A stretch of 64,000 bases of DNA from Haliovirga abyssi (lineage in GTDB: Bacteria > Fusobacteriota > Fusobacteriia > Fusobacteriales > Haliovirgaceae): contig NZ_AP027059.1 in the NCBI RefSeq assembly GCF_030295325.1, positions 2,363,923 to 2,427,922 of the forward strand, written 5' to 3'. Numbering within the stretch: the stretch's first letter is position 1; each line of letters starts with the position of its first letter. A program made the translations under genes and the position numbers. Shown here piece by piece: positions 2,775-44,585 of this stretch. The notes beneath the pieces were generated by a model, which saw nothing but the letters and a program-made list of their open reading frames with translations, did no database searches and was not told the DNA's origin.

Positions 2775-2834
2775 TTATCATCTCCTGTGCTTATTTTTTA
2801 TGTGTCCAATGCTAGCTTTATATAAATTGTCTCT

Positions 2835-2863
2835 ATTTTACTCTTAATTTCTATTTTTGTCAA
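2835..2863 (-). promoter_or_regulatory. Sigma-70-type promoter for the HTH-EIIA/hydrogenase operon
   Basis: Read on the minus strand: -35 TTGACA (2858-2863), 17-bp spacer, -10 TAAAAT (2835-2840), about 60 bases upstream of the ATG at 2774. Confidence 0.6.
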
Positions 2864-2938
2864 CAAATGTCTTTAAATGTCTAATTGTTTTTTTATAATT
2901 AGATTAAAAATTTAACCTTAACATATCGAAAATCTTCC

Positions 2939-2967
2939 TTGCAAAATTACTAATAAAATACTATAAT
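2939..2967 (+). promoter_or_regulatory. Sigma-70-type promoter for the 114-aa orphan gene
   Basis: TTGCAA (2939-2944), 17-bp spacer, TATAAT (2962-2967), 50 bases upstream of the ATG at 3017. It diverges from the promoter at 2835-2863. Confidence 0.55.
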
Positions 2968-3016
2968 AACTAATAAGAATATTATTATTTTTAATGGCTC
3001 TCCAGGAGATGATTAT

Positions 3017-3361
3017 ATGAATATTATTTTAGAATTAATTAATAAGAACTTTAGCGACTATTTATGTATCTATGAAATCAAAGATTCATTTTTTTTTAAT
3101 GGATTGGAAATTGAAGATAGTGAAATTGAAAAAATACTTTTTAAATATACTAAAAATAATAATGAAATTTTTGAAATAACCAATTATACTGATTTCCAAT
3201 TTTCTAATATAACCTTAAATGAACTTTCAGAAGATTTACAAGATTATATTCAAAACAAAAGAAAACAATATAGTATAAATAATAATTTAGATAATCTCTC
3301 TAACAATAACTATTTAGATACAGATTTTCATATAAAAAAGAAACAGCTCAAATTAATATGA
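3017..3361 (+). CDS. Hypothetical 114-aa protein, the only plus-strand gene in the window
   Basis: No family recognised. The protein is acidic and Asn-rich with no signal peptide or membrane helix. The first 90 residues look like a small alpha/beta fold (MNIILELINKNF, then LNELSEDLQDYIQNKRKQY), followed by an Asn-rich linker and a basic tail KKKQLKLI. It looks real: AGGAG 7 bases upstream of ATG, a good promoter at 2939-2967, and a strong terminator whose stem encodes the last residues and contains the stop. It is therefore monocistronic, and it is transcribed against the replication fork coming from the origin at the right end. Function unknown. Confidence 0.6.
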   Translation: MNIILELINKNFSDYLCIYEIKDSFFFNGLEIEDSEIEKILFKYTKNNNEIFEITNYTDFQFSNITLNELSEDLQDYIQNKRKQYSINNNLDNLSNNNYLDTDFHIKKKQLKLI

Positions 3362-3375
3362 GCTGTTTCTTTTTT
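3334..3375 (+). terminator. Rho-independent terminator overlapping the stop codon
   Basis: 17-bp perfect stem 3334-3350 with 3359-3375, 8-base loop, ending in a T-run. The TGA of the 114-aa ORF (3359-3361) is the first part of the 3' arm. Confidence 0.85.
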
Positions 3376-3506
3376 ATATACTCAAATATTTATTAAAATA
3401 TAATGATTTTAAATAAAACTATATTTTAACTTCTTTTTTAATCTTAAATCCATATTCTGATACATACACTCCAAATAATGTCATTATCCCACAAAAAATA
3501 AAAAAA

Positions 3507-3582
3507 TGGCTCCCTGAACCGGATTCGAACCAGTGACAAGGTGGTTAACAGCCACCTGCTCTACCAACTGAGCTATCAGGGA
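3507..3582 (-). tRNA. tRNA-Asn (anticodon GTT), last gene of the rRNA operon
   Basis: 76 nt including encoded CCA. Acceptor stem TCCCTGA/TCAGGGA, D-arm AGCTCAGTTGGTAGAGC, anticodon loop CTGTTAA, T-arm GGTTCGAATCC. It lies 21 bp downstream of 5S rRNA in the same direction, so it is very likely co-transcribed. Confidence 0.95.
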
Positions 3583-3603
3583 AACCAGTATGTATAAATT
3601 AAA

Positions 3604-3722
3604 GCTTGGCAGGGACCTATCCTCCCAGACCGCTACCAGTCAAGTACTTTCGGCGCATAAAGGCTTAACTACCAGGTTCGAAATGTAAACTGGGTGTACC
3701 CCTTTAGCTATACCCACCAAGC
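3604..3722 (-). rRNA. rrf: 5S rRNA
   Basis: About 119 nt, closed by the terminal helix AGCTTGG/CCAAGCT. Contains the conserved CCGAAAGTACTTGACTGG-type domain and the CGAACCTGGTAGTTAAG segment. Ends are estimated from the terminal helix. Confidence 0.95.
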
Positions 3723-3812
3723 TAAATAATAATTGGTTTATGAACGTTTAAAAATAAACTTACGTTATTCTTTAAACAGTTCTTTAATATTCTTTTTTTT
3801 AAAAGAGATTCA

Positions 3813-3825
3813 AAATTGTATAGTA
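3813..3825 (-). other. 3' arm of the 23S rRNA processing stem
   Basis: Thirteen bases perfectly complementary to 6877-6889 on the other side of 23S rRNA. Such flanking stems are the usual RNase III processing substrate of precursor rRNA. Confidence 0.6.
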
Positions 3826-3861
3826 ATATTACAAGCAGTTTTAATCAAAGAAACTATTTAA

Positions 3862-6800
<2,939 letters not shown>

Positions 6801-13670: not shown

Positions 13671-16600
13671 ATTTTTTTTAATATTTTTCCTGTTTTTTTA
13701 TCTAAATTCACTATTATATTTCCTTGAGGCCCAGTTGCTAACTTTTCTGAATTAAGCAAATCTATAAATTTTTCATCTTGAAAATCTGTTGGTATTACTA
13801 TATTTTCTTGGTTTTCAAAACTATTATTCAAAATAATTAGAAAATGATTTTCATCATCAAATCTAGAATATGAAATTATATCTTTTTCATTATCCCAATA
13901 TATTTCTTTAAATTCCCCATATATTAAAGTCGAATTTTCTTTTCTAATCTTAATTATTTTTTTATACCAAGAAAAAAATTCTTTGTCTGGTTTCACTTTA
14001 TAATTTTCTTTGCTTTTTACTCCTAAAGTTCCATCTGTTTCATTTTCATAATCAAATTCTTCCCAAAGCATTGGTTTCCTACAATATGGGTCAGTTGCTC
14101 CCCACATACCCACTTCATCGCCATAATAGAGCATTGGAGCACCTATATATGTCATTTGAAATATTGAGATTAACTTTAATATATCTTTTGGTTTTATTTC
14201 TGATTTTTTCCAATTTATTGTTGTATTTTTATGTGAATTATCTGTTAAATCTGGTCTTTTTGTGTTGTATCCTTTATCTAGTTGTTTTCCTTCTTCTAAG
14301 TCTCTGCCTAATTTATCATTTACTATTCTTGATAATAACCTATCAGTATCGTGTGAGCCGTTTAAATTTTGAGATACTTGAAGAGACTGTATTGGATACC
14401 AGTATCTTTTTTCTTTTAATTCATTAAAAAACTGTTCTGCTGTTAATTTATATGAAGCATTGAATTCTTTACCTTGATTTATAAAATATCCAATAGTTGA
14501 TTTTAGCCATTCATAATTCATTACAGTGTCGTATTTTACTCCATCATTTATATCAGAACGAGCATCTCCCCAAAGTTCAGCAGTTATATATGCATCTTTT
14601 TTTGTGTCTTTTACTACTTTTCTCCATAATTGCCAAAAATATTGATTTTCTACACAATTTGGAACATCTAGTCTAAAACCATCTATTCCATCATCTTCCA
14701 TCCAATTTTCAGAATTTTTTCCATCAGGCCCTAACAACCACTTCTTTGTTATATTAAAAATATATTCCATATACTCTTTATTGTATGTATTAAATTCTGG
14801 TAAATCATTAAATCCTGCCCAACCTGAATAATGCACACTATTTTTATTGTGTAATAAAGTTTTATATGCTTCTTCTTCTGACATATCATCTTTTATCTCT
14901 TTAAATTTTGAAAAATCATGAAATTTATACCATTTTGCATATTTAGAATTAACTCCCTCTGCCATTGCTAATTCAAAACTCCAATGATTTTTCCCAGTAT
15001 GATTAAACACTCCATCAAATATAACTCTTATTCCATTTTTATGCAATTCTTTTATTAAATCAACTGCTATTAAATCTGATTCTGTCCATACCCAAGTTTC
15101 TGGATTTTCTGTTTCAAAATATCCATTTTTACCCTTGTTTTCTCCCTGGATTTTTACTCTTAAAAGTTTTAATTCACTCTCTTTTTCATATCCATTTGTT
15201 AATATATCTAAATAAGTTTTATTTCCATATCTGTTTTCTTTTGACACTTTTATATTATAATCTTTTCCTGTCATTTTTATAGTTCCAAAATCTGGTGAAA
15301 CATGTCTAAAATCAGATGTTCCATATTTATGATTTGAATCTGCAAAAAATATTGGATTTAACCAAATTGCATTTACTCCTAGCTCTTTTAAATATGGTAT
15401 TTTTTCTTTTATACCTTGTAAATCGCCACCATACATTCTTGAATATTTCACAGAGTATCCAACATCTTTTTCCCTTTTTTCTTCCCATTCTAATTTTGTT
15501 TCAAAGTCTGAAGTCCAATTATTTAATTTAAATTCTCCAAATTTATCTGTATATATTCCCCATTTATATTTTTCTATATCATCACTTCTTTTATTTGGAG
15601 CAATAAAATTTTCTGGTCCAAATTCATTATACAATGGGTCATTTTCTTTATTTCCGTTATAGAATCTTTCAGGAAAAATATTATACCAAATTGCTTCTTT
15701 TGCCCATTTAGGTACGTCAAAAATTGGAAATTCTCCTGTGGCATAATCAACTTCAAAAAAATCTATTGTATCATATACTAATCCTTTTGGAGTATAATAA
15801 GCAATTTTATTTCCATCTTTTAATTCAAAATAGTATTTGAATTTTTCAGAATTAATTCTAAATTTAATTATTCTTTTAAAGTAATCAAATTGATACCCTT
15901 TACTGTTTATTCTTTCTAATTCATATACCTCTTCTATACCATCTTCTTCTAATAAGTGCAGAAATATTTTTTCTACATCATTTTCTTGTGTTCTTATACT
16001 AAATTCTATATCATCCTCTACTTTATTTAAATAATCTAATTTATGCGGAATATGAACTATTGCTTTTATTTTATTATTCTTATCAATTGCATCATACACA
16101 AATTTTCCATTTCCTATTTCACCTTTTGGAAATAAACTACCTATTTCTCCAACTATTAATTTTAGATTATTGTCAAATGGAACCCAATCTCCATCTATTA
16201 CTAATTTGTATTCATAAACTCCTTCATCTAATGCAAGATAAGTTTCAAATATAGAATTAGATATTTTTGTTAAAACAGTTGTATGAATATTCCAGCCATT
16301 AAAATTTGATGGCATTTCTACTTTTTTAGGATTCTCATATCCATATCTTTTTGTATCTATTACAAACTTAGTAAACCTCATTTTTTTTAAAGAAACTTTA
16401 CTGTTTTTTATATCAAATATAATTAATATATCATCGCCTGATTTTATTCCACCAACAGGCTTTTTTTGCTCCAACTTTGAGGTATATGCTTCAAAAATTT
16501 TAGAAAATGGTGCTGTGTGCGAAAAAGTAATATTACATTTTTCGTTAGATTCTTTTTTTATAATTTCAAAACTGTATGCTCCATCTGTTTCTACATTATG

Positions 16601-30995: not shown

Positions 30996-32309
30996 CTAAT
31001 CAATTTTTAATATATTCATCACATCTTTAATTATAACATTAATAAATTTTTCTTGAAAAGATTTTCCACCAACTTCTTTTAAAATTTCTGATATTTTTTT
31101 TAACTCTAAATCTTCAATTTTATTTAATTTTTTCATACTTGTATCTTTTATCTTCTCATCTGATAAATTTTTTATGTAATTTTCTCTGTTATATCCAATT
31201 AATTTAATATTTTTATTATAACGTTTTTTTAATTTATCTGCTATAATCAATCCTTCTGGATCTAAATCTCCAGAATATATAAGTTTTATGTCGCTTTTAA
31301 CTGCTAAATCCATTAAAAATAGTGCTGATGATTTTATATTACCATATCCACAAATCATAGGAATAATAATATTATATTCAACTTTAAAATAGTTAAATAT
31401 CTCTATAAATACAGCTGGATTCTCAACTATAATCAAATAATTATAGTTAGAAATAATTTTTTTTAATTTTGTAATTCCTGTCATAGGCATAATAAAATAT
31501 TCGCCATTATTATAAAATTCTCTCCAGCCAGTGTGCCTTCCTTTTGCTATTTCTGCTTCTAATCCTGATATTGCCACGCTATTTGAAATGTCATCTGTAA
31601 TTATACCTGCTTCAATATACATTTCAATTCTCTCTTCCGCATTTGTTGGATATTTCTTATTTAAATAATATGATATTCCATATAAAAGTAACTTTCCAGC
31701 AAAATTTTTATTGTCAAAAAAGTGTGGGTCTTTTGATATATCTGATGCAAATATTGCTAAAAGTTTATACTCTTTTTTGATTATAGGTAAATTATTTAGA
31801 CCTTTTATTATTCTTTCTATTATAATTTCAAATTCATTAAGATTATTTTCTTTTTCAAATTTATTATATTCTTTTATTAAAATATTATTCCCTTTATTTC
31901 CTTCAATTAAAAATTTTAAAAATTCTCCGCCTACTGTTTCTGCATACCATTCATATAAGTCGACAAAAAACTTTTCTCTTTGTTTTTCATAATTTTCCAT
32001 TTTATCTTTTTTGTATATAATATTTTCATTAAAATAAATTTCTAAAGCCAATTTAAAATTATCATTTGAAAAGTTCATATTATTAAAACTTTTTATTATA
32101 TTTTCTATTAAAATTGTTTTTTTACCTATCTCGTAATTTTCTCCTGTAATTTCAGAAAGAGCTGATTTCTCAGCTCTTGACAGTTTTTCTTTTTTTATTT
32201 TTCCTAAAAATTTTCCAAATGACTCATATTTATTTTTAATAATTATTAAAATTTTTCTTAAATCTTTTTTAGATTTTAAATATTTCACTAATTCCTGCTC
32301 TTTAGTCAT
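30996..32309 (-). CDS. jetD: Wadjet type II nuclease subunit JetD (DUF2399, TOPRIM)
   Basis: 437 aa. The C-terminal TOPRIM-like domain has the glutamate in VENPAVF (E296) and the DxD motif in YSGDLDPEG (D348, D350). Upstream GLEAEIAKGRHTGW fits the DUF2399 family. In Wadjet systems JetD is the DNA-cleaving subunit that acts after the JetABC SMC motor has recognised and extruded small circular DNA. It is the last gene of jetABCD, 38 bp after jetC. A decayed copy of its centre lies at 23251-23310. Confidence 0.9.
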   Translation of the reverse strand: MTKEQELVKYLKSKKDLRKILIIIKNKYESFGKFLGKIKKEKLSRAEKSALSEITGENYEIGKKTILIENIIKSFNNMNFSNDNFKLALEIYFNENIIYKKDKMENYEKQREKFFVDLYEWYAETVGGEFLKFLIEGNKGNNILIKEYNKFEKENNLNEFEIIIERIIKGLNNLPIIKKEYKLLAIFASDISKDPHFFDNKNFAGKLLLYGISYYLNKKYPTNAEERIEMYIEAGIITDDISNSVAISGLEAEIAKGRHTGWREFYNNGEYFIMPMTGITKLKKIISNYNYLIIVENPAVFIEIFNYFKVEYNIIIPMICGYGNIKSSALFLMDLAVKSDIKLIYSGDLDPEGLIIADKLKKRYNKNIKLIGYNRENYIKNLSDEKIKDTSMKKLNKIEDLELKKISEILKEVGGKSFQEKFINVIIKDVMNILKID

Positions 32310-32347
32310 ATTATTCTCCTAATTTTTTCTTCTCAACTCTTTATCCT

Positions 32348-35300
32348 CTAAAACATCTTCATATTCCCGCTTTTATTATCGTATAATTCTTTCCCCACTA
32401 CAGCTGTTCTTTTATTTCCATTCCATTTATATCTAAATACTGTTACTACATCAGAATTATTTGGTCTATATAATTCAGCTATTGCAAGATTTGGTATTGT
32501 TCCATAATCTCCCCATAAAACCTGAGAATTAACTATAAAATCAAATTTCATATTAACCATAAATTCAAACATTACACTAATATTTCTTTCATCTACTCCT
32601 GCAAAAGCTTCATCAAGAGATATTATTTTTGGCGCATCTTTTGAAGCATTGTCATATCTGGCACTTACTGCTGCGAACAGCGGAACATACATTGTCATTG
32701 CTTTTTCTCCGCCACTAAATTTATAAAATTCATTTTGAGTTAATTGTTTTTTTAGTCCCTCTCCTCTTTTTACTGATAATTTAAATTCATACCACTCTCT
32801 ATAATCCAGCAACTCTTTCATAATTGTATGAAATGATTTAATATTATCCTCTTTCTCCATCTCTTTTTTAGCTTCTGCTATTTTTGATTTAAAATGAGAT
32901 ACTATTTTCGTTATATCTTCTGTTCTTCTTGTAAATTCATCTTTTCTTAATAATTTAACAAGCTCACTTGAATTCATCTGTTCCTCATTATCTGGTTTTC
33001 TTCCAGCCCAACTTAATCCAAGTCTTATTGTATTAGTATTCATACTCTCCATTAATTTATTCATATTAAAAACCCAAATTTCGCTTTTTTCAATTTTTTC
33101 TGTAATTCTTTTACTAATTGTTTTTATTAATATCTCTTCAAAAAGCTCTCTCTCTTTATCTGCTAATAGTTTTTCATCTCTTAATATATTTTCTTCTATA
33201 TCTGATAATATATGTATAAGATTTGTCTTTTCTCCTCTTATTTTTCCTATTACATCAACTCTTTTTAATTCTCCTAAAACTTCATTAATAACTCCATTTA
33301 TAGGCTCATTAAATCTATATTCCATATTAAGTCTATAATCTGATAAATAGTTTTTTGATATTAAAAACTTATTATTAAGGTCATTAGAATACTCTATCCC
33401 TTTATCTATATCAATATTTCCTGATAATCTTTGTGATAATGCCTTTAATTCACTTTTATTGCTAATATCCAGCTCATTAACTACATACGCTAAATTTACC
33501 TCTTCATATAATCCTTTTTTCCAAGACGATTCTAACTCTTTTAAATTTTCGCTTTCTTGCTCTATTTTTATTAAATTTTCTTTTAAATTTTTTATTTCTG
33601 ATTCTATTGAGCTTATTCTCATTATAGTTTCATTAAAATTTTTCTCATTTTCTTTACGTTTTTCTTTTAATTGTGCCAATTGCTCTACTAAATTTTCTAT
33701 TCCTTCTTGTTCTGCTCTTTTTTCTAACTCTTCCAATATTTGCTTTTGTGTATCTAACGCTTTTTTAATTTTATTTAAATTTAATTTTATATCTTCAATT
33801 TCATCTTCTACATTTTCAATATTTTCTATTAATCTATCTATTCTTTGCCCAAAATCTAAAAATCTTTTATATTTATTTTCTATTTCCAAAATATTATATC
33901 TGTATTTTTCAATTAAATCCAAAGCTTCTGTAAATGATTCTAAATCTAAATTAATTTTTGTTCTTACTCTTAACTCGTTTACTTTTTCATTTAAACTATT
34001 TTTTCTCTGTCTAGCAATTAATTCTTCTTTCTCCTTTTCCTCTATTTGGTAAAATTTCATCTGTTTTTCTCTTTTTAATATATTTATATTTTCCATTATT
34101 TCTTCTATTTGAATAAAATCAGGTATATTTTCAAACTCTTTTTTTAACATCTCTTTTCTATTTTTTAGATTAGATAATTTTTCTTCTATTTTTGCTTTTT
34201 CTAAATTTAAACTCTCAATCTTTTCTTCAAGCAATTTTATTAGCTCTTTTTTATAATTTTCTCTTGCACTTATTCCTATAAATTTTGCTTTATTAATTTT
34301 TGTTGTTTTTCCTTCAATTGGACCATAACTATATTTTCCCTCTATACCAATAAAAAATTCTCCACTTTTTTGATTAACAGGGATAGATTTTAATATTTTT
34401 TCAATATACTCTTTCTCTTCTTCGTTATATTTAGCTTCTACTTTTAAATAATTAAATAAATTTTTATTTTCTCTGTTTTCTTCAGATATATTTTTATCAT
34501 CTCTATTTTTATTATACGTCTTTAATAATTTTATCCCCTCTTCAATATCCAATTTTGGCATTTCATTATCAAATAAAATTATTGAGCTAATTATATTTGT
34601 ATCAATTAATATCTCTTCAATTATCCCTTTTGTTTCCTCAGATATATTTTCTCTAAAATCAACTGTTTTCCAAAACATATCATATTTTATTTTTAGACTA
34701 TCCAACTTTTTACAATATTTTTTTTCTTTTTCTTCAATTTCATATATAGGGTCTTTTTTTGATTTCCACTCATCTATTTCATCACTTTTTTCTTGAATTT
34801 TTTCATTTAAATTTTCAATATGAAACCTGTTTTCAATAACCTCTTTTTCTATATTATTACTACATCTATTAAAAATGTTTTTATATTTATATTTAATATC
34901 CAAAATATATTTTTTTTCATCACAACTATTTACTGCTATAATTATATCTTCTAAATCTTTTTCTTGGAAATTCAATTCTTTAGTTTCACTTGCATATTTT
35001 TCTAATTTCTCTAAATATATCTCTTTAGAATTATCAGATTTCTTTTCTTCATTTACAATCTCTTCCTCAATTTTTCTTAATTCATCTTTTAAATCATCTA
35101 CTATTTTTACTATTTTATCATATTCTTCACAGCTTTTTTTATAATTTTCTATTATAATTTTTCCATTCCTAAAAAAATCTTTGAAAATATCTGTCTCTTT
35201 TTTTAATAATTCAAAATTATAATCTTTATCCAATTTTGAAAAAAACTCTTTTCTAAAATTTATATCTTCTGAAAAATTAATTTCATTAGCCCTCTCTCTG

Positions 35301-36472
35301 TTTTCATCTATTAAGCTGTTTAATTGACTATATAAAACCTCTTTATCATTTTTAAGAGAATTAATTTCAGAATATTTTATATTTCTATCCTCTTCTCTTC
35401 TTTCGAGTCTTCTGTTTTCTGTTTCAAAATCCTCTTTTTTCTCTTTTACATATGATTTTATATCTAAAATTTCTTTTTGTAATTGATAAAATTCGCTTTT
35501 TTCATATGTCTCTATTAAATGATTTATACTCTCTTTTTCAGCTTCAAGTTTATCTCTTTTTGTTATTGACTCATTTTTCTGATTATTAATATTTAAAATA
35601 TATTTTTCCGTTCTTTTTAATTCTGATATATTTTTGTCTAAGTTTTCTTTAGCTTGAATATATTTGTTTAATTTTTTTAATAAAATATATGAATTATATT
35701 TATCGTAAGCTCTTTTTATTTTTTCAGATTCTCGTTTTGCATTTTTTAAAGATTTTAAATTATCTTGAAGTTCATCCATATTTTCTACTGCTTCTGTTAA
35801 AGGTCTTAATTCATCATCAGATATAGGCTCTAATGAACCTTTTAATATTTCATAAGTTGCACTTGGTTTGAAATTTTTAGATAATTTTGGACTTCTAAGA
35901 TTTATTAATAGATTAACTAAATCTTCATATTCTTTTACAGTTTCAAATCCAAATATATATCTATTAACCATAGCCACATAATCGCTTTGTTTATCAACAA
36001 CTGTCCCGCCATTTCCAATTGCATTTTTTAGCTCCATTTTAGACAATGGAACTTTATTTACTTTCTCTTTATATAAATAAAAATCTCGTCCAATTCTTCT
36101 TCCATCATCTATACAAAAATACCATGTCCTTGTTGCAGTTCCACGTTTTGCTCTAATTCCCATACCAAATGAAATATACTCACCTGTTTTCTTCTTTAAC
36201 TCCATATAAAGATAACCTGTATTTTCATCATACTCTGTTCCTTCCGGAAGTATATATGAATCTATTCTTCTTGCTCTTGAACCAAAAGGATCTAATCTTT
36301 CAGGTCTTACACTTCCGTCAAGAAGCAACGGTATAAAACTCTGCATAGTTACTGACTTTCCAGAACCATTAGAACCTCTTAATAACAATTTTCCATCTTC
36401 TAATGTAAACTCTTCATCATCATAATACCAAAAATTTATCAACCCAAATCTCTTTATTTGCCATCTATTCAT
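32348..36472 (-). CDS. jetC: Wadjet type II SMC-like ATPase JetC
   Basis: 1374 aa, about the size of the TIGR02680 SMC-like family. Walker A GSNGSGKS (33-40) lies at the N-terminus. Long coiled coils fill residues about 240-620 and 720-1150 around a hinge-like region near 640-720. The ABC signature SGGEK (1253-1257) and Walker B IISLDEAFAGVD (D1287, E1288) are at the C-terminus. MukB-like architecture: a dimer with JetA (kleisin) and JetB extrudes DNA loops. Its start overlaps the end of jetB by 8 bp. Confidence 0.95.
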   Translation of the reverse strand: MNRWQIKRFGLINFWYYDDEEFTLEDGKLLLRGSNGSGKSVTMQSFIPLLLDGSVRPERLDPFGSRARRIDSYILPEGTEYDENTGYLYMELKKKTGEYISFGMGIRAKRGTATRTWYFCIDDGRRIGRDFYLYKEKVNKVPLSKMELKNAIGNGGTVVDKQSDYVAMVNRYIFGFETVKEYEDLVNLLINLRSPKLSKNFKPSATYEILKGSLEPISDDELRPLTEAVENMDELQDNLKSLKNAKRESEKIKRAYDKYNSYILLKKLNKYIQAKENLDKNISELKRTEKYILNINNQKNESITKRDKLEAEKESINHLIETYEKSEFYQLQKEILDIKSYVKEKKEDFETENRRLERREEDRNIKYSEINSLKNDKEVLYSQLNSLIDENRERANEINFSEDINFRKEFFSKLDKDYNFELLKKETDIFKDFFRNGKIIIENYKKSCEEYDKIVKIVDDLKDELRKIEEEIVNEEKKSDNSKEIYLEKLEKYASETKELNFQEKDLEDIIIAVNSCDEKKYILDIKYKYKNIFNRCSNNIEKEVIENRFHIENLNEKIQEKSDEIDEWKSKKDPIYEIEEKEKKYCKKLDSLKIKYDMFWKTVDFRENISEETKGIIEEILIDTNIISSIILFDNEMPKLDIEEGIKLLKTYNKNRDDKNISEENRENKNLFNYLKVEAKYNEEEKEYIEKILKSIPVNQKSGEFFIGIEGKYSYGPIEGKTTKINKAKFIGISARENYKKELIKLLEEKIESLNLEKAKIEEKLSNLKNRKEMLKKEFENIPDFIQIEEIMENINILKREKQMKFYQIEEKEKEELIARQRKNSLNEKVNELRVRTKINLDLESFTEALDLIEKYRYNILEIENKYKRFLDFGQRIDRLIENIENVEDEIEDIKLNLNKIKKALDTQKQILEELEKRAEQEGIENLVEQLAQLKEKRKENEKNFNETIMRISSIESEIKNLKENLIKIEQESENLKELESSWKKGLYEEVNLAYVVNELDISNKSELKALSQRLSGNIDIDKGIEYSNDLNNKFLISKNYLSDYRLNMEYRFNEPINGVINEVLGELKRVDVIGKIRGEKTNLIHILSDIEENILRDEKLLADKERELFEEILIKTISKRITEKIEKSEIWVFNMNKLMESMNTNTIRLGLSWAGRKPDNEEQMNSSELVKLLRKDEFTRRTEDITKIVSHFKSKIAEAKKEMEKEDNIKSFHTIMKELLDYREWYEFKLSVKRGEGLKKQLTQNEFYKFSGGEKAMTMYVPLFAAVSARYDNASKDAPKIISLDEAFAGVDERNISVMFEFMVNMKFDFIVNSQVLWGDYGTIPNLAIAELYRPNNSDVVTVFRYKWNGNKRTAVVGKELYDNKSGNMKMF

Positions 36473-37613
36473 TCTCTTTCTCCTTATAAAAATCTTTTGG
36501 ATAATTCCCTATATATTTAGATATTGCCGGTAATAATTCTATCTCGCCTTTATTCTCATTATTATTGTTCAAAAGATTGAATCCTTTCATATATTTAATT
36601 AAATCTTTTGTTATCCCTTCAACACTCATATTTCTATATTCACTACTCCATCCAGAACTATATTTTTCTTTACATAATTTTACTATTTCTAAAAATTTAT
36701 CATAACTAATAATAATTCTATCTCTTTCATTATACGAAATTTCTCCTACATTTACTTTATTAATTATTTCTCTACTAACCAATAAAACTATATCTGAAAT
36801 AGCTTTTGCTCCAGGAAAAACATCTTTATAATTATAGCTGTTTTCAATTTCAATCATTGCATAATTTTTTGTCAAATTAAATCCAGCTTCGAGATATTTT
36901 TCAAATTCAGATGCAATATTATGAGTTTGTTTTTTCATATAATCAAAATCTGATTCATTCTCATTATCTCTTGTTACAACTGCATTTATCAATAAATTTT
37001 TATATACTCTTTGAGCTCTTGCAGTTCCTCTATCTCTACTTTCATCTTGCCAAATCTCATTTTCGAAATCACTTATATCTTTATATTCAGAAATATCTCT
37101 ATTAAAATTTCTTATAAAATATCTGGATATTCCAGTAGATTCATATAAAACTTGCGCATTCAAATCGTTTTTAAAACTATCTTCTTCTCCAAAATTTATT
37201 TTAACTAATTTCATCTCAACTAAAAATTTTAAAACTTTAACAAAACTCTTTCTTAATGAATAACTATTCCAATCAATATAAAATTCTATTGGATAATTTA
37301 ACTCCACAAATTCTGAAATATCAGAAAGTATAAATTGGTCACCTCTGTCTTTATCTTCTAAAAATGCCAATACCAAAGAGAACATTATATATTGTTCAGT
37401 TTGATTAAAATCTGGAATTCCCATCCAATCTTCTGCTCTCTCTGGTATTTTTTCTAATTTAATTAAATGTTTATTTCTTATTACTGACAATCCACATTTT
37501 TCTTCTAAAAATGGTTTAAAAGTAGCTATTTTTTCTTTTATTTCAAAATATCTATCTTTATCATCTTCTTTTAATATCCAAAATTTTTCCAATAATATCT
37601 CAATCTCTTTCAT
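36465..37613 (-). CDS. jetB: Wadjet type II subunit JetB (DUF2398, KITE-like)
   Basis: 382 aa, matching the roughly 380-aa DUF2398 family. LEKIPERAEDWMGIPDFN (about 52-69) and the winged-helix-rich C-terminal half agree with a tandem winged-helix SMC partner comparable to MukE. ATG overlaps the jetA stop by one base (TAATG), tight coupling. The role as part of the SMC complex is from known Wadjet systems. Confidence 0.88.
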   Translation of the reverse strand: MKEIEILLEKFWILKEDDKDRYFEIKEKIATFKPFLEEKCGLSVIRNKHLIKLEKIPERAEDWMGIPDFNQTEQYIMFSLVLAFLEDKDRGDQFILSDISEFVELNYPIEFYIDWNSYSLRKSFVKVLKFLVEMKLVKINFGEEDSFKNDLNAQVLYESTGISRYFIRNFNRDISEYKDISDFENEIWQDESRDRGTARAQRVYKNLLINAVVTRDNENESDFDYMKKQTHNIASEFEKYLEAGFNLTKNYAMIEIENSYNYKDVFPGAKAISDIVLLVSREIINKVNVGEISYNERDRIIISYDKFLEIVKLCKEKYSSGWSSEYRNMSVEGITKDLIKYMKGFNLLNNNNENKGEIELLPAISKYIGNYPKDFYKEKENE

Positions 37614-39142
37614 TAGCTCTCACCTACAATTTTTATAATAATATCTGGCATATAAAATATCCCATCAATACAATTTAATCTGATTTGATTTTTATCATTC
37701 ATTAAAATTTTATATGAACTGTTATCTTCATTTTTTCTAATTGGAAATACCCTATATTTAATATTTTCAACTATTTCAAACTCTTTATTCCCGGGAGATT
37801 CAATTCCCCTTACTATCCATCTAAGCAAAGTTTTTCTAACATTTTCAGATATATTATCCAAATCAGAAATTTTTATCATTTCACTTTTTACAAGCTCTAA
37901 TATCTCTTGTTTTTCTTTTTCTAATTCTCGCTGTTTTTCTCTAATTATTTCAGCTTTTCTATGTGTTTTATCAATAATAGCTATTGATTGTCTTTTTTCT
38001 CTATATTTTCTTGTTCGTGGTTTTATCTCTAATTCTATTGGCTCTGTTTCAAATGCTCCTATATTTTTATCTGTAACTTCTCCTCTAATTTCACCTTTAA
38101 AATGTTTGGTATTAAAAGCTCCAAAAATCATTGCTGAAAGTTTATGAGCTTCATTAATAGAATTACAATTTGAAAACAGAGAAGCTATTTTTAAGCACTC
38201 CTCTTTTCTACTTGAAATTTGTCTACTACTTTCCGATATATGTAAAGCTATTCTTACTATTTTTCTTATAATTTCATTTGTCCTGTCATATAACATCTCC
38301 ATCTCACTTTTTCTATTTTCATTCCCCAAAAACCAAAGTAAAACAGCTTCCCATTTTCCAGTTAAATCCTCAAAAATATTTTCTTCTGTTATATCAGGAG
38401 TTAAAATCATAATTTTCTTTTTTTCTAATGAAATTTTCCTAAATATCTCTTCTATTTTTTCTTTATCTATATCTTTCAAAATTTTTACTATAGATAATCC
38501 ATATTTTTGTAATCCTTTGATGAAATTCCTCAAATAATCAATAAGATTATCTTTATATATTATAAATTGAGTTGTATTAAGTAGCTCTTCAAATTTAAAA
38601 CTATTAAGTTTCATTATATAGCTTTTATAATTATTATTTAATCTTTCAAAATCAGATATAATATTACTCCACAAAGAATTTATATCGGTAACTTTATTAA
38701 TCTCTTTTTTATCCAATTCCTCAAGACTATCTCTTAATCTCTCCATAAGAGATGGATCTAATTCTGCTTCTTGAAAAACTATTTTTTCTAAATCTTCTGA
38801 CACAAGTTTTTCTATAGTTATAGCTTTTTCTGTAATTTGATAAATATATTTTTTATTTTTAAATTCTTCTGGAGTGGTTGCTTTAGCTGTATCTTGAATT
38901 CCTATTATATTGCCCCATTCCATTAATTTATTTATATCCTGCTCACACATATCAGAACTATAATCTTTAAATTGCTCGCTTTCTCTCATAATTTTTACAA
39001 TCTCATCTTTATATAAAGTCCGATTTAATTGGTTATATTTTTCATAAAAAATCCTAATTATCGCTCTATATCTCCTTACATTTTCTGCATTCAGATATTT
39101 CACTTCAGTTATAGGTTTTAAATGTTTATTAAAAAATTCCAT
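37613..39142 (-). CDS. jetA: Wadjet type II kleisin subunit JetA (DUF2397)
   Basis: 509 aa, the length of DUF2397 proteins. The N-terminus has a winged-helix (VRRYRAIIRIFYEKYNQLN) followed by helical segments; a basic helix near 385-410 (RTRKYREKRQS) precedes the C-terminal winged helix. By analogy with MukF it bridges the two JetC heads. First jet gene, 69 bp after the stop of the nearest ATPase-nuclease gene, so read-through from that array is possible. AGGGGAT gives a moderate ribosome-binding site. Confidence 0.88.
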   Translation of the reverse strand: MEFFNKHLKPITEVKYLNAENVRRYRAIIRIFYEKYNQLNRTLYKDEIVKIMRESEQFKDYSSDMCEQDINKLMEWGNIIGIQDTAKATTPEEFKNKKYIYQITEKAITIEKLVSEDLEKIVFQEAELDPSLMERLRDSLEELDKKEINKVTDINSLWSNIISDFERLNNNYKSYIMKLNSFKFEELLNTTQFIIYKDNLIDYLRNFIKGLQKYGLSIVKILKDIDKEKIEEIFRKISLEKKKIMILTPDITEENIFEDLTGKWEAVLLWFLGNENRKSEMEMLYDRTNEIIRKIVRIALHISESSRQISSRKEECLKIASLFSNCNSINEAHKLSAMIFGAFNTKHFKGEIRGEVTDKNIGAFETEPIELEIKPRTRKYREKRQSIAIIDKTHRKAEIIREKQRELEKEKQEILELVKSEMIKISDLDNISENVRKTLLRWIVRGIESPGNKEFEIVENIKYRVFPIRKNEDNSSYKILMNDKNQIRLNCIDGIFYMPDIIIKIVGES

Positions 39143-39211
39143 CTTATCCCCTTTTTATTGTTTTTTAATTGTTAATATGTCGTATAAAGGTCAATTATCT
39201 TTCCCATCTTA

Positions 39212-40762
39212 TCACACAACTATCTCAAATATCTCTTTCCCTTCCACTATAACTCTATCCTTAATATACTTTTTCCCCTTATTAAAATTATAAAACACCA
39301 TATACCCCTTATCTAAATTTTGTGCCTCCAAATATCCACACAACTGCTCCCTACCCTCTTGTTCATACTGACCACCACGCCATATCTTTAACTCTATTAC
39401 ATATTTTTTCATATTGTAAGTTACAACTATATCCATTCTATTGGACTCTCTTGTTTCTGATTCCACAAAATAAAATCCCGTTCCATTTATTATTGGCTTT
39501 AAAAATGCTAAAAATAGAAGCCGTCCTTCTCGCTCTACAAATTTTTCATCTATTTTTCTATATTCTGCTTTCATTAGTTCTTGAAATTTACTTAATACTA
39601 ATTCCATATCCAAATCGCCATTATCATTTATAAATTTCCCCATATATTTATAATCAAGAACAGGCCCTTTTTTCATTTCTCTCATTGCTATCATATAGTT
39701 ATATAAAAGTATCTCAAATATCTTATTATTAATTATTAATTTATGTTTTTCATTTTCTCTAAATATTCCATACATTATTCCTAAATTATGAGCTTGTAAA
39801 TTATACTGTATTTCCTCTCCATCAAGGACTATTCTCTCTATTAGATTATATAATTCTTTATATCTATTTATATTTTTTATTACATCATCAAATAATGTAT
39901 TATTACTATTTAATATTATTTTTATAGCTTCTTCTAACCCTTTTTCACTAAAATCTCTATCTAATTTTTCATCTATTACTTTGCATAATTTACTTACTAA
40001 AAACGGATACCCATTTGTATACATATATATTTTTTCAGAAATATTTTTTATATCCATTCCTGTCTTTGCATCTACTTCATATTCAATTAACATTGTTGAT
40101 ATCTCTTCTGAATTAAAGCTCATATCTATATCAAAATCTAACGCTATATTCCACGGACTATTTAATGTCCTAGTTTCATCTGGTCTTAATTTCAATTTCA
40201 AATTTTTTACATCATGTACTCCTGCTAATATTACTGTATTAAATGTATAATCTTTTCCCATATTTCTTCTTAAATATTTATCTCTAAACATTCCTATAAA
40301 ATTTAAGAATAATTGATTATTACTGCTTTTATCTACTTCATCTATCATTAATATTACTTTTTTATTTGCTTCTAATATAAAGTCTGTTATAAATTCATCT
40401 AACTCTTCGAAATTTGTTACCCTATTATTTTCATCAATAAATTTTATTAATTTTGTTTCTTTTTTTAATTTTAACTCTTTTCTTAATAGTTTTATAAATA
40501 CTTTTGATAAATTTTTTTCATTTTCAAAAGGAACTTCTCCTATCCCTTCAAAACTTATTGATATTAATAAATATTCCTTATTATCTCTCAATTTTCTTTC
40601 TAATAAATACATTGTTGTTGTCTTCCCATATTGTCTTGGACGATTTATTGTAAAATATTTTCTTTTTTCTATTAATTTTATTATTTCATTTAATTTAGAT
40701 GTTGTATCTACCATATAATGTTCTTCAGGAATACAAGTTCCTGTTATATTAAATTCTTTCAT
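39212..40762 (-). CDS. AAA-ATPase with C-terminal PD-(D/E)XK nuclease domain, copy 1
   Basis: 516 aa. Walker A-like RPRQYGKTTT (41-50), Walker B VILMIDE (136-142), STAND/Orc-type lid region 170-280, a variable segment (about 284-380), and a C-terminal PD-(D/E)XK fold with RMDIVV (D444) and VIELK (E457, K459). The family is abundant in anaerobes, is often present in many copies, and its function is not established; a defence or mobile-element role is suspected. Start has AGGAGG 5 bases upstream. Nearest of the three copies to jetA. Confidence 0.85.
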   Translation of the reverse strand: MKEFNITGTCIPEEHYMVDTTSKLNEIIKLIEKRKYFTINRPRQYGKTTTMYLLERKLRDNKEYLLISISFEGIGEVPFENEKNLSKVFIKLLRKELKLKKETKLIKFIDENNRVTNFEELDEFITDFILEANKKVILMIDEVDKSSNNQLFLNFIGMFRDKYLRRNMGKDYTFNTVILAGVHDVKNLKLKLRPDETRTLNSPWNIALDFDIDMSFNSEEISTMLIEYEVDAKTGMDIKNISEKIYMYTNGYPFLVSKLCKVIDEKLDRDFSEKGLEEAIKIILNSNNTLFDDVIKNINRYKELYNLIERIVLDGEEIQYNLQAHNLGIMYGIFRENEKHKLIINNKIFEILLYNYMIAMREMKKGPVLDYKYMGKFINDNGDLDMELVLSKFQELMKAEYRKIDEKFVEREGRLLFLAFLKPIINGTGFYFVESETRESNRMDIVVTYNMKKYVIELKIWRGGQYEQEGREQLCGYLEAQNLDKGYMVFYNFNKGKKYIKDRVIVEGKEIFEIVV

Positions 40763-40886
40763 TTTTACCTCCTATTGCTTTATAATCTATCTTTAAATTT
40801 ATAACTATTTTTCTATTACTTTTCAAATTTGAAATCTATCCATATAAAATTTTATTAAATTTTTATTTTATTTTCTATCTGCCCCT

Positions 40887-40927
40887 ATCCGCCTTTATCT
40901 CGTGGTTAAAATTTATTTTTTCTTCTA
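40887..40927. repeat. Intergenic repeat shared with 44487-44527
   Basis: A 41-base tract containing TATCCGCCTTTATCTCGTGG and an A/T-rich tail recurs at 44487-44527 with about four changes. One copy follows ATPase copy 2, the other precedes copy 3, so the flanks were duplicated along with the genes. Confidence 0.65.
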
Positions 40928-40959
40928 TCTTCTCATTATAAATTTTCAATTATACTTTT

Positions 40960-42513
40960 TCACACAACTATCTCAAATATCTCTTTTCCTTCTACTATAA
41001 CTCTATCCTTAATATACTTTTTTCCCTTATTAAAATTATAAAACACCATATACCCCTTATCTAAATTTTGTGCCTCCAAATATCCACACAACTGCTCCCT
41101 ACCCTCTTGTTCATACTGCCCACCACGCCATATCTTTAACTCTATTACATATTTTTTCATATTATATGTAACAACTATATCCATTCTATTTGACTCTCTT
41201 GTTTCTGATTCTACAAAATAAAATCCCGTTCCATTTATTATTGGCTTTAAAAATGCTAAAAATAGAAGCCGTCCTTCTCGCTCTATAAATTTTTCATCTA
41301 TTTTTCTATATTCTGCTTTCATTAGTTCTTGAAATTTACTTAATACCAATTCCATATCTAAATTACCATTATCATCTATAAATTTTGTCCTAAATTCATA
41401 AGTTAAAACTACTCCTTTTTCTCTCTCTCTTTTTGCTATCATATGATTGTAAAGTAATATTTCAAATATTTTATTGTCTATCTCTACTTTTTTATTTTTT
41501 CCTCTTATTATTCCATACATTTTGCCTAATGAAGCCATTATATCTGTATGCACATAATCAACTTTCTCATTTCCTAATATAACTTTTTCTATAAATTTAT
41601 AAAACTCTCTATTATTTTCTATATTTTTTATTATATCATCAAATAGTGTATTTGGGGTTTCCAATATTATTTTTATAGCTTCTTCTAACCCTTTTTCTGT
41701 AAAATCTCTATCTAATTTTTCATCTATTACTTTGCATAATTTACTTACTAAAAATGGATACCCATTTGTATACATATATATTTTTTCTGAAATGTTTTTT
41801 ATATCCATACCTGTTTTCGCATTTTTCTCATAATCTATTAACATTGTTGATATCTCTTCTGGACTAAAGCTCATATCTATATCAAAATCTACCGCTATAT
41901 TCCACGGACTATTTAAAGTTCTGTTTTCATCTGGTCGCAATTTCAACTTTAAATTTTTTACATCATGTACTCCTGCTAATATTACTGTATTAAATGTATA
42001 ATCTTTTCCCATATTTCTTCTTAAATATTTATCTCTAAACATTCCTATAAAATTTAAGAATAGTTGATTATTACTGCTTTTATCTACTTCATCTATCATT
42101 AATATTACTTTTTTATTTGCTTCTAATATAAATTCTGTTATAAATTCATCTAACTCTTCGAAATTTGTTACCCTATTATTTTCATCAATAAATTTTATTA
42201 ATTTTGTTTCTTTTTTTAATTTTAACTCTTTTCTTAATAGTTTTATAAATACTTTTGATAAATTTTTTTCATTTTCAAAAGGAACTTCTCCTATCCCTTC
42301 AAAACTTATTGATATTAATAAATATTCTTTATTATTTTTCAATTTTTCTTCTAATAGATACATTGTTGTTGTCTTCCCATATTGTCTTGGACGATTTATT
42401 GTGAAATATTTTCTTTTTTCTATTAATTTTATTATTTCATTCAATTTAGATGTTGTATCTACCATATAGTGTTCTTCAGGAATACAAGTCCCTGTTATAT
42501 TAAATTCTTTCAT
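40960..42513 (-). CDS. AAA-ATPase with C-terminal PD-(D/E)XK nuclease domain, copy 2
   Basis: 517 aa from the conserved start MKEFNITGTC, which has GGAGG upstream; an earlier in-frame ATG at 42540 lacks one. Nearly identical to copies 1 and 3 over the ATPase and nuclease domains, with the same Walker and ExK motifs. The segment from about residue 284 to 385 is clearly different (for example KIILETPNTL, then VDYVHTDIMASLGKMYG), as if a specificity module was swapped. Middle member of the tandem array. Confidence 0.85.
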   Translation of the reverse strand: MKEFNITGTCIPEEHYMVDTTSKLNEIIKLIEKRKYFTINRPRQYGKTTTMYLLEEKLKNNKEYLLISISFEGIGEVPFENEKNLSKVFIKLLRKELKLKKETKLIKFIDENNRVTNFEELDEFITEFILEANKKVILMIDEVDKSSNNQLFLNFIGMFRDKYLRRNMGKDYTFNTVILAGVHDVKNLKLKLRPDENRTLNSPWNIAVDFDIDMSFSPEEISTMLIDYEKNAKTGMDIKNISEKIYMYTNGYPFLVSKLCKVIDEKLDRDFTEKGLEEAIKIILETPNTLFDDIIKNIENNREFYKFIEKVILGNEKVDYVHTDIMASLGKMYGIIRGKNKKVEIDNKIFEILLYNHMIAKREREKGVVLTYEFRTKFIDDNGNLDMELVLSKFQELMKAEYRKIDEKFIEREGRLLFLAFLKPIINGTGFYFVESETRESNRMDIVVTYNMKKYVIELKIWRGGQYEQEGREQLCGYLEAQNLDKGYMVFYNFNKGKKYIKDRVIVEGKEIFEIVV

Positions 42514-42703
42514 TTTTACAACCTCCGCTTGTTTTATCATTTATCTTTAAATTTATAATTGCTTTTCTATTATTATTATATCTTCTACTCCATTATTTAG
42601 CATATTTGGAATCTACTCCTACAAAAAAATTTTTTGAATTATCACTATATCTTCTATGCTTCTATCTTCTCATTGTTAATTTTTCATTATCAATTATCTC
42701 TTA

Positions 42704-44254
42704 TCACACAACTATCTCAAATATCTCTTTACCTTCCACTATAACTCTATCCTTAATATACATTTTCCCCTTATTAAAATTATAAAACACCATATACCCC
42801 TTATTTAAATTTTGTGCCTCCAAATATCCACACAACTGTTCCCTACCCTCTTGTTCATACTGACCACCACGCCATATTTTTAACTCTATTACATATTTTT
42901 TCATATTATATGTAACAACTATATCCATTCTATTGGACTCTCTTGTTTCTGATTCTACAAAATAAAATCCTGTTCCATTTATTATTGGCTTTAAAAATGC
43001 TAAAAACAGTAATCGCCCTTCTCGTTCTACAAACTTTTCATCTATTTTTCTATATTCTGCTTTCATCAATTCTTGAAATTTACTTAATACCAATTCCATA
43101 TCTAAATTGCCATTATCATCTATAAATTTCCCCATATATTTATAATCAAGAACAGAACCTTTTTTCATATCTCTCATTGCTATCATATAATTATATAAAC
43201 GTATCTCAAATATTTTATTATGAATTATTAATTTATGCTTTTTATTTTCTCTAAATATTCCATATATTATTCCTAAACTATGAGCATCAGAATTATATTG
43301 AATCTCCTCTCCATCAAGGACTATTCTCTCTATTAGATTATATAATTCCTTATATCTATTTATATTTTTTATTACATCATCAAATAATGTATTATTACTA
43401 TTTAATATTATTTTTATTGCTTCTTCTAACCCTTTTTCTGTAAAATCTCTATCTAATTTTTCATCTATTACTTTGCATAATTTACTTACTAAAAATGGAT
43501 ACCCATTTGTATACATATATATTTTTTCTGAAATGTTTTTTATATCCATTCCTGTTTTAGCATCTGCTTCATATTCAATTAGCATTGTTGATATCTCTTC
43601 TGAATTAAAGCTCATATCTATATCAAAATCTACCGCTATATTCCACGGACTATTTAAAGTTCTGTTTTCATCTGGTCGCAATTTCAACTTTAAATTTTTT
43701 ACATCATGTACTCCTGCCAATATTACTGTATTAAATGTATAATCTTTTCCCATATTTCTTCTTAAATATTTATCTCTAAACATTCCTATAAAATTTAAGA
43801 ATAGTTGATTGTTACTACTTTTATCTACTTCATCTATCATTAATATTACTTTTTTATTTGCTTCTAACATAAGCTCTGTTATAAATTCATCTAACTCTTC
43901 AAAATTTGTTGCATTATTATTTTCATCAATAAATTTTATTAATTTTGTTTCTTTTTTTAATTTTAACTCTTTTCTTAATAGTTTTATAAATACTTTTGAT
44001 AATTTTTTTTCATTTTCAAAAGGAACTTCTCCTATTCCTTCAAAACTTATTGATATTAATAAATATTCCTTATTATCTCTCAATTTTCTTTCCAATAAAT
44101 ACATTGTTGTTGTCTTCCCATATTGTCTTGGACGATTTATTGTAAAATATTTTCTTTTTTCTATTAATTTTATTATTTCATTCAATTTAGATGTTGTATC
44201 TACCATATAATGTTCTTCAGGAATACAAGTTCCTGTTATATTAAATTCTTTCAT
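42704..44254 (-). CDS. AAA-ATPase with C-terminal PD-(D/E)XK nuclease domain, copy 3
   Basis: 516 aa from MKEFNITGTC with GGAGG upstream; the longer frame starting at 44287 has no ribosome-binding site. Walker A, Walker B, D and ExK positions equal those of copy 1. Its variable segment is of the copy 1 type with scattered substitutions (YNSDAHSLGIIYG against YNLQAHNLGIMYG). First gene of the island in transcription order; a possible -10 TATAAT lies at 44372-44377 but no good -35 pairs with it. Confidence 0.85.
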   Translation of the reverse strand: MKEFNITGTCIPEEHYMVDTTSKLNEIIKLIEKRKYFTINRPRQYGKTTTMYLLERKLRDNKEYLLISISFEGIGEVPFENEKKLSKVFIKLLRKELKLKKETKLIKFIDENNNATNFEELDEFITELMLEANKKVILMIDEVDKSSNNQLFLNFIGMFRDKYLRRNMGKDYTFNTVILAGVHDVKNLKLKLRPDENRTLNSPWNIAVDFDIDMSFNSEEISTMLIEYEADAKTGMDIKNISEKIYMYTNGYPFLVSKLCKVIDEKLDRDFTEKGLEEAIKIILNSNNTLFDDVIKNINRYKELYNLIERIVLDGEEIQYNSDAHSLGIIYGIFRENKKHKLIIHNKIFEIRLYNYMIAMRDMKKGSVLDYKYMGKFIDDNGNLDMELVLSKFQELMKAEYRKIDEKFVEREGRLLFLAFLKPIINGTGFYFVESETRESNRMDIVVTYNMKKYVIELKIWRGGQYEQEGREQLCGYLEAQNLNKGYMVFYNFNKGKMYIKDRVIVEGKEIFEIVV

Positions 44255-44555
44255 TTTTACAACCTCCATTAGTTTGCCTTGTTTCAATTTCTTTTTTATT
44301 ATATTATGATTAGACCCCCAAAATGTAGCTTTCTAAAATCATATTATTAAGAGCTCAATTAACTTAATAGTATTATAACATATTTGAATTACAAAATAAA
44401 TTTTTTTATATTTTCCAACAGTCCCAAGTTTTTGTAGAAAAAAATTTCATTTAGTTTTCATTATTATTTTATCTTACATTACTTTTTATCCGCCTTTATC
44501 CCTTGGTTAAAATATATTTTTTCTTTTTTCTTCTATATTCTAATTGTCAACTATT
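44255..44555. other. 301-bp gap between the M18 aminopeptidase and the defence island
   Basis: No ORF of note. It holds a tract at 44310-44338 resembling 23368-23397 beside the jetD fragment, a possible -10 box (44372-44377, minus strand), and one copy of the 41-base intergenic repeat (44487-44527). Confidence 0.5.
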
Positions 44556-44585
44556 AAAAAAAGGACGGCTTTCGCCATCCTTTTT
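44556..44585 (-). terminator. Terminator of the M18 aminopeptidase gene
   Basis: Minus strand AAAGGATGGC, loop GAAA, GCCGTCCTTT with one G-U pair, then a T-tract. Starts 2 bp past the stop. Confidence 0.9.

What the first reader, a model, noticed from the sequence alone, without database searches (positions are those of the whole stretch)
30996..44254. Type II Wadjet anti-plasmid system joined to three tandem ATPase-nuclease genes
A complete jetABCD set is directly preceded, same strand and 69 bp away, by three AAA-ATPase/PD-(D/E)XK paralogues. The pairing in one direction suggests a composite defence island in which a second nuclease family with its own variable region accompanies the SMC plasmid sensor. 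Wadjet is established; its link to this ATPase-nuclease family is, to my knowledge, not.
Basis: partly seen in the sequence, partly recalled or inferred. Interest (0 to 1): 0.72.

Follow-up and report, generated by a model that had tools for sequence, protein, structure and literature searches.

The report
Wadjet operon beside ATPase-nuclease gene array
A standard anti-plasmid Wadjet type II operon lies directly behind three near-identical genes for a predicted ATP-driven DNA nuclease; this exact nuclease family is next to Wadjet nowhere else we looked, but its wider superfamily has landed beside Wadjet several separate times, more often than simple chance predicts, which makes a loose partnership worth testing.

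Summary
jetABCD (30996-39142, minus strand) is a complete, ordinary type II Wadjet operon. Three AAA/PD-(D/E)XK paralogues (39212-44254) precede it on the same strand, 69 bp away, with no terminator in the gap. The array belongs to a 10-copy family in this genome. The seven other copies sit among housekeeping genes, and the family was found at none of 54 other type II Wadjet stretches. It is also absent from 97 other Fusobacteriota genomes. Yet genes of the wider AAA-PD-(D/E)XK superfamily (DUF1703 and a ~530-aa subfamily) lie immediately next to Wadjet, same strand, in 5 of those 54, plus one remnant. The expectation is 0.12-0.36 (P 2e-7 to 3e-5), and a JetA tree requires seven separate changes. 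Caveats: the placement null is uniform, the criterion came partly after seeing the data, and the replication batch alone is weak (1 locus, P 0.04-0.12). My reading: two autonomous DNA-interference modules, juxtaposed repeatedly but optionally; functional cooperation is unproven. A second result: paralogues share nearly identical ATPase and nuclease domains but carry discrete, exchanged winged-helix modules, as in clostridial arrays, which suggests an interchangeable recognition domain.

The parts
42704..44254 (-). AAA/winged-helix/PD-(D/E)XK paralogue w3 (first of array; ORF opens at 44287, conserved ATG at 44254), module class alpha
40960..42513 (-). AAA/winged-helix/PD-(D/E)XK paralogue w2 (ORF opens at 42540, conserved ATG at 42513), module class beta
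39212..40762 (-). AAA/winged-helix/PD-(D/E)XK paralogue w1 (516 aa), module class alpha
43118..43357 (-). swapped winged-helix/linker module of w3 (about residues 300-379)
41371..41616 (-). swapped winged-helix/linker module of w2 (about residues 300-381)
39626..39865 (-). swapped winged-helix/linker module of w1 (about residues 300-379)
39215..39607 (-). PD-(D/E)XK nuclease domain of w1 (residues 386-516; D444, E457, K459, Q473)
39143..39211 (-). 69-bp gap between w1 and jetA; no hairpin or terminator; AAAAAGGGG ribosome-binding-like stretch before jetA
37613..39142 (-). jetA (DUF2397, type II)
   Evidence: PADLOC JetA2 1.1e-149, Pfam PF09660
36465..37613 (-). jetB (DUF2398, type II)
   Evidence: PADLOC JetB2 3.6e-131, Pfam PF09661
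32348..36472 (-). jetC (SMC/MukB-like ATPase, 1374 aa; Walker A GSNGSGKS, SGGEKA, Walker B)
   Evidence: PADLOC JetC2 1280 bits, PF13558
30996..32309 (-). jetD (DUF3323/DUF2399, Toprim-like nuclease subunit)
   Evidence: PADLOC JetD2 1.1e-111
44556..44585 (-). intrinsic terminator-like GGATGGC-GAAA-GCCGTCC-TTTTTTT after the M18 peptidase gene; suggests that the array starts a separate transcription unit
   Evidence: read from sequence
44372..44380 (-). extended -10-like TGTTATAAT upstream of the array; candidate promoter (inference)
   Evidence: read from sequence

Best explanation
The window holds two autonomous DNA-interference modules side by side. The first is an ordinary type II Wadjet operon. 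JetABC would extrude DNA loops and JetD would cut small circular DNA (established for Wadjet in general, mostly type I; inferred here). The second is a tandem array of single-gene ATPase-nucleases. Each has an Orc/STAND-type AAA domain, a winged helix and a McrC/restriction-like PD-(D/E)XK nuclease, so it is likely an ATP-gated DNA nuclease whose winged-helix domain decides what it binds (inferred). Gene conversion keeps the ATPase and nuclease domains of the paralogues alike, while discrete winged-helix modules are kept apart or exchanged. The placement beside Wadjet is non-random at the level of the AAA-PD-(D/E)XK superfamily but optional: different subfamilies have landed directly before jetA or after jetD several independent times, in about one locus in ten. 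In this genome the array probably arose by local duplication of one of ten dispersed copies. Shown: gene content, mosaic structure, superfamily adjacency above a uniform null. Inferred: nuclease activity, recognition role, cause of the adjacency.
For: Complete JetA2-B2-C2-D2. Ten intact copies at seven sites, only one near Wadjet. Family absent from 97 other Fusobacteriota genomes but about 500 relatives in other phyla, i.e. horizontally acquired and expanded. 0 of 54 other Wadjet stretches carry this subfamily; no jetA/B/D in 1.26 Mb around 75 family loci. Superfamily genes at gene slot +-1, same strand, in 5 of 54 stretches (72 bp after jetD in L026; 372 bp before jetA in L119; 172 bp before jetA in L129; 134 bp before jetA and 275 bp after jetD in L138; 122 bp after jetD in L157), remnant in L146. 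Expected 0.12 slot-1 adjacencies, P 2e-7; 0.35 within 3 kb, P 3e-5. The JetA tree forces seven changes, window included. Among 60 non-Wadjet DUF1703 loci no immediate neighbour family recurs more than twice, and PADLOC shows no excess of defence families next to them (69 families in 119 near genes vs 165 in 97 far genes). Folds: AAA plus winged helix, residues 2-355, match archaeal ATPase 2qen at Z 16.0, rmsd 4.7 over 319 residues; nuclease domain matches McrC at Z 8.9, rmsd 3.6 over 112 residues. dN well below dS in all pairs tested. Module discordance: holding w1-w2-w3 together is rejected for the winged-helix region (AU p 1e-49) but supported 99/98 for the rest.
Against: The null assumes uniform placement; if superfamily genes were about 6 times denser in the kind of region that holds Wadjet, the excess would vanish. 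The slot-1 criterion was sharpened after the first batch; the Lachnospirales replication alone gives 1 locus (P 0.043 by slot, 0.12 by the pre-stated 3 kb). The adjacent genes belong to three subfamilies sharing only about 17-28% identity with each other, so they may not share one function. No activity of any member is known.
Confidence: 0.6

Rival explanations
1. Functional composite: the AAA-nucleases are an accessory arm of Wadjet, co-transcribed with it, e.g. attacking DNA that Wadjet cannot handle (large circles, phage DNA) or degrading Wadjet products.
For: Same strand, 69 bp, no terminator in the gap, terminator and candidate promoter only upstream of the array. Recurrent, independent, immediately adjacent superfamily genes, on the same strand in all cases. 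Slot 1 is favoured: in all six other loci (remnant included) the nearest member is at slot 1, which is about a quarter of all slots.
Against: Some genes lie after jetD, others before jetA; about nine in ten Wadjet loci have none; seven of ten copies in this genome work, if at all, without Wadjet; same-strand neighbours are common anyway (78% at slot 1).
Confidence: 0.25
2. Recombination platform: the multi-copy, gene-converting nuclease genes provide homology by which Wadjet operons are integrated, moved or lost; adjacency reflects how Wadjet arrived, not what the proteins do.
For: In L138 two 88%-identical copies flank jetABCD as direct repeats, with the central to C-terminal part almost wholly identical. 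The window array shares long blocks at 95-100% nucleotide identity among its copies. Copies recombine visibly. Paralogue recombination is also reported for DUF1703 in Cardinium (PMC6387759).
Against: In the window all three copies lie on one side of jetABCD, so there is no flanking repeat pair; L119 and L026 show a single copy.
Confidence: 0.25
3. Coincidence: in this genome a 10-copy family happened to abut the only Wadjet operon.
For: Seven sites in a 2.7-Mb genome; the subfamily is adjacent to Wadjet nowhere else; the window was picked because the arrangement looked striking.
Against: Sister subfamilies show the same adjacency repeatedly.
Confidence: 0.25

Closest known systems
Wadjet type II (JetA2-JetD2)
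   Same: All four subunits, order A-B-C-D, overlapping or closely spaced genes, same strand; PADLOC type II models score far above the others
   Different: Nothing in the operon itself; only the neighbouring nuclease array is unusual
DUF1703 proteins: AAA-ATPase_like (PF09820) + PDDEXK_9 (PF08011); Knizewski 2007 (PMC1913061), Cardinium cCpun expansion (PMC6387759)
   Same: N-terminal AAA with RPR-type Walker A and DE-x-D Walker B, helical/winged middle, C-terminal PD-(D/E)XK; multi-copy, horizontally spread, recombining paralogues
   Different: Window copies have RPRQYGKT, no PF08011 match, and only about 18-21% identity to canonical members; paralogues here are homogenised at both ends, whereas the Cardinium paper reports no apparent homogenisation
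AAA-like domain-containing proteins (AAA_35, PF14516) as in Clostridium, Butyrivibrio and Bacteroidales
   Same: Window copies 2 and 3 exceed the PF14516 cut-off; relatives at 47-59% identity in other phyla
   Different: Ten-copy expansion seen in no other Fusobacteriota genome searched; function unknown throughout
McrBC (AAA+ motor plus PD-(D/E)XK McrC)
   Same: Nuclease domain is closest in fold to McrC (Z 8.9); ATPase-coupled nuclease logic
   Different: One polypeptide; Orc/STAND-type ATPase rather than the McrB GTPase; no McrB-type DNA-binding domain identified

Membership tests
Wadjet type II | JetA DUF2397, JetB DUF2398, JetC SMC-like with Walker A/B, JetD DUF2399/Toprim, contiguous on one strand | tested here: met
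Wadjet type II | restricts plasmid transformation or conjugation | not testable with these tools
   needs a plasmid assay; shown for a native Wadjet in C. cellulovorans (PMC12287153)
DUF1703 (PF09820 + PF08011) | PF09820 AAA-ATPase_like above cut-off | tested here: met
   29.2, 27.3, 31.1 bits vs 26.1
DUF1703 (PF09820 + PF08011) | PF08011 PDDEXK_9 nuclease domain | tested here: not met
   no PF08011 match to the window copies at E 0.1; two dispersed relatives below cut-off. Filed as a relative, not a member
PD-(D/E)XK nuclease superfamily | restriction-endonuclease-like fold with D...ExK | tested here: met
   fold of isolated domain: McrC Z 8.9, BamHI Z 7.7; D444 and K459 invariant, E457 at least 90% in 74 relatives
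Orc/STAND-type AAA ATPase with winged helix | AAA core with following winged helix | tested here: met
   2qen Z 16.0 over residues 2-355, 2fna Z 15.2
Composite Wadjet + AAA-nuclease system | recurrent adjacency across independent lineages, this subfamily | tested here: not met
   0 of 54 other stretches
Composite Wadjet + AAA-nuclease system | recurrent adjacency across independent lineages, wider superfamily | tested here: met
   5 of 54 vs 0.12-0.36 expected, seven changes on the JetA tree
Composite Wadjet + AAA-nuclease system | co-expression and functional dependence | not testable with these tools
   needs RNA-seq and deletion assays

The most novel reading that the evidence does not exclude
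AAA-winged-helix-PD-(D/E)XK nucleases are a recurrent, interchangeable accessory of type II Wadjet: a second ATP-driven nuclease with exchangeable winged-helix recognition modules that widens the range of foreign DNA the Wadjet locus can destroy.
Probability: 0.2. Interest if true: 0.75.

Novelty: new variant of a known kind. Interest (0 to 1): 0.48.

Why it matters
The DUF1703-type AAA-PD-(D/E)XK proteins are widespread and often multi-copy but have no known function. Repeated independent placement directly beside an anti-plasmid system is a guilt-by-association lead towards DNA interference, and it can be tested at once. The exchanged winged-helix module between homogenised ATPase and nuclease domains points to where specificity would lie. 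In the held library no paper among those listed mentions both Wadjet and DUF1703.

Tried and rejected
1) Subfamily-level linkage to Wadjet: rejected (0 of 54 stretches; nearest full or partial family copies 50-97 kb away on shared contigs). 2) A conserved operon partner for the family: 142 immediate neighbours of 75 family loci show no recurrent partner beyond syntenic sets in related gut Bacteroidales. 3) General defence-island residence of DUF1703 genes: no PADLOC excess in near versus far genes (crude, as the tool lists families, not hit members). 4) Mobile-element cargo: no phage record and only two distant plasmid records match. 5) Similarity between dispersed copies stops at the ORF, so no transposon-like unit was found. 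6) Promoter scan at background level (113 found, 110.6 expected), so it cannot decide co-transcription. 7) Sequence search of solved structures gave nothing usable.

Full report
WHAT IS THERE. The window is the last 64 kb of a 2.43-Mb contig in a 2.73-Mb genome that is alone in its family within Fusobacteriota. By size, base composition and taxonomic isolation it may be Haliovirga (my inference, not shown; one search gives only the taxonomy). On the minus strand lie, in order of transcription, three AAA/PD-(D/E)XK paralogues (w3 44254-42704, w2 42513-40960, w1 40762-39212) and jetA, jetB, jetC, jetD (39142-30996). PADLOC type II models match all four jet genes at 1e-111 or better.

TRANSCRIPTION. 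The gap has no hairpin (z 0.19) and the scan finds no terminator there. A terminator-like sequence follows the upstream peptidase gene at about 44585-44556, and an extended -10-like TGTTATAAT lies at 44380-44372 (read). One transcript from the array into jetABCD is possible; nothing here tests it.

THE NUCLEASE FAMILY. The genome holds ten intact copies at seven sites; only the window site is near Wadjet, and there is one jetA. The other six sites lie among genes such as prfB, an amylase, a LeuA-like synthase, a glycosyltransferase, FtsX-like permeases and a histidine kinase. 97 other Fusobacteriota genomes have none, while 502 stretches in GTDB genomes encode relatives, mostly in Clostridia and Bacteroidales among the 75 loci kept, which indicates horizontal acquisition and expansion. 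All pairs tested show dS well above dN, so copies are kept functional.

FOLD. The AlphaFold2 model (pLDDT 82.3) matches the archaeal AAA ATPases 2qen (Z 16.0) and 2fna (Z 15.2), and Orc/Cdc6 and NLR proteins, over residues 1-355 or less. The separately modelled residues 386-516 (pLDDT 85.8) match McrC (Z 8.9) and BamHI (Z 7.7), i.e. PD-(D/E)XK. Z near 8 is modest by itself, but the conserved D, E and K support it.

MOSAIC PARALOGUES. w1 and w2 share 95-100% nucleotide identity in the first 180 codons and 94-99% in the last 125, but 51-71% in codons 301-390. There w2 is 92-97% identical to a copy elsewhere in the chromosome (L005). Three discrete module classes exist in the genome. The same pattern occurs in tandem arrays of Clostridium weizhouense, C. 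uliginosum, C. algifaecis and C. ljungdahlii, where module classes are shared between species while ATPase and nuclease parts are often more alike within a genome. In 204 similar pairs the module identity is spread widely with two peaks, against one narrower peak for a control segment. Tree tests: for C. uliginosum the within-genome pair is rejected in the module (p 2e-6) but fully supported in the rest, and its two cross-species pairs are rejected in the rest (p 1e-4 and 5e-5) and not rejected in the module. The clades tested were partly chosen after seeing identities, and the C. algifaecis/ljungdahlii cross-species pair is not rejected in the rest (p 0.09). The module coincides with the winged helix and linker. 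Recombining paralogues are known for DUF1703 in Cardinium (PMC6387759); exchange of one discrete winged-helix module between homogenised ends is, as far as I found, not described.

LINK TO WADJET, SUBFAMILY. 54 other type II Wadjet stretches were read (7 Fusobacteriota, the rest mostly Clostridia including Lachnospirales; two of them, L129 and L130, are probably halves of one operon split by assembly). None carries the window's subfamily (a 124-aa fragment in L146 scores only 17 bits with its profile). In the other direction, 75 family loci (1.26 Mb) contain no jetA, jetB or jetD.

LINK TO WADJET, SUPERFAMILY. Unexpectedly, Pfam found PF09820+PF08011 genes among Wadjet neighbours. Reading all 54 stretches with profiles shows superfamily genes at gene slot +-1, same strand, in five (L026, L119, L129, L138, L157), with a remnant in L146. 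The five are also found by PF08011 whole-genome counts, so observed and expected use one detector. With 175 copies in 52 genomes, 0.124 slot-1 adjacencies are expected (P 2e-7), or 0.353 within 3 kb (P 3e-5). The Lachnospirales batch was counted as a replication after the 3-kb criterion was written down: 1 locus against 0.126 (P 0.12), or 0.044 by slot (P 0.043). That locus has two copies before jetA and one after jetD. The JetA tree requires seven separate changes, window included (long branches near the window). Apart from ABC transporters, which are scattered over all slots, this is the most recurrent neighbour.

CONTROL AND LIMITS. Sixty DUF1703 loci away from Wadjet in the same genomes have no immediate neighbour family recurring more than twice, and their neighbours match fewer PADLOC families than genes two slots further out. 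This speaks against a general habit of sitting next to defence genes, but the measure is crude. A sixfold local density of superfamily genes would remove the excess. The adjacent genes span three subfamilies at about 17-28% identity.

VERDICT. Each component is a known kind. The juxtaposition is real, optional and, at superfamily level, probably not chance. Its cause (cooperation, recombination platform, shared islands) is open.

Noticed in passing
L138 (G686:C1:719700-739200), 2551-4155 and 14206-15810: Two 88%-identical ATPase-nuclease genes flank jetABCD as direct repeats, nearly identical from the middle onward; a natural test case for excision or exchange of Wadjet by recombination.
   Followed up: partly
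L041, L042, L048, L049 (Clostridium): Tandem paralogues with near-identical ATPase and nuclease domains carry different winged-helix modules whose classes are shared between species.
   Followed up: yes
G000 (whole genome): Besides the ten-copy family the genome also has six canonical DUF1703 genes above the PF08011 cut-off.
   Followed up: partly
L005 upstream of the gene and window about 44295-44345: A palindromic, MITE-like element lies upstream of one dispersed copy, and a similar half in inverse orientation upstream of the window array.
   Followed up: no
window about 40860, about 44500; upstream of L007: An intergenic repeat resembling AACCACGAGATAAAGGCGGATA occurs next to several family copies.
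   Followed up: no
L021:10546-11427: One dispersed copy is followed directly by a PDDEXK_2 (Rpn-like) nuclease gene on the same strand.
   Followed up: no
G121 contigs C33, C93, C21: One metagenomic Bacillota genome shows three jetA matches; C93 and C21 are probably halves of one operon at contig ends.
   Followed up: partly
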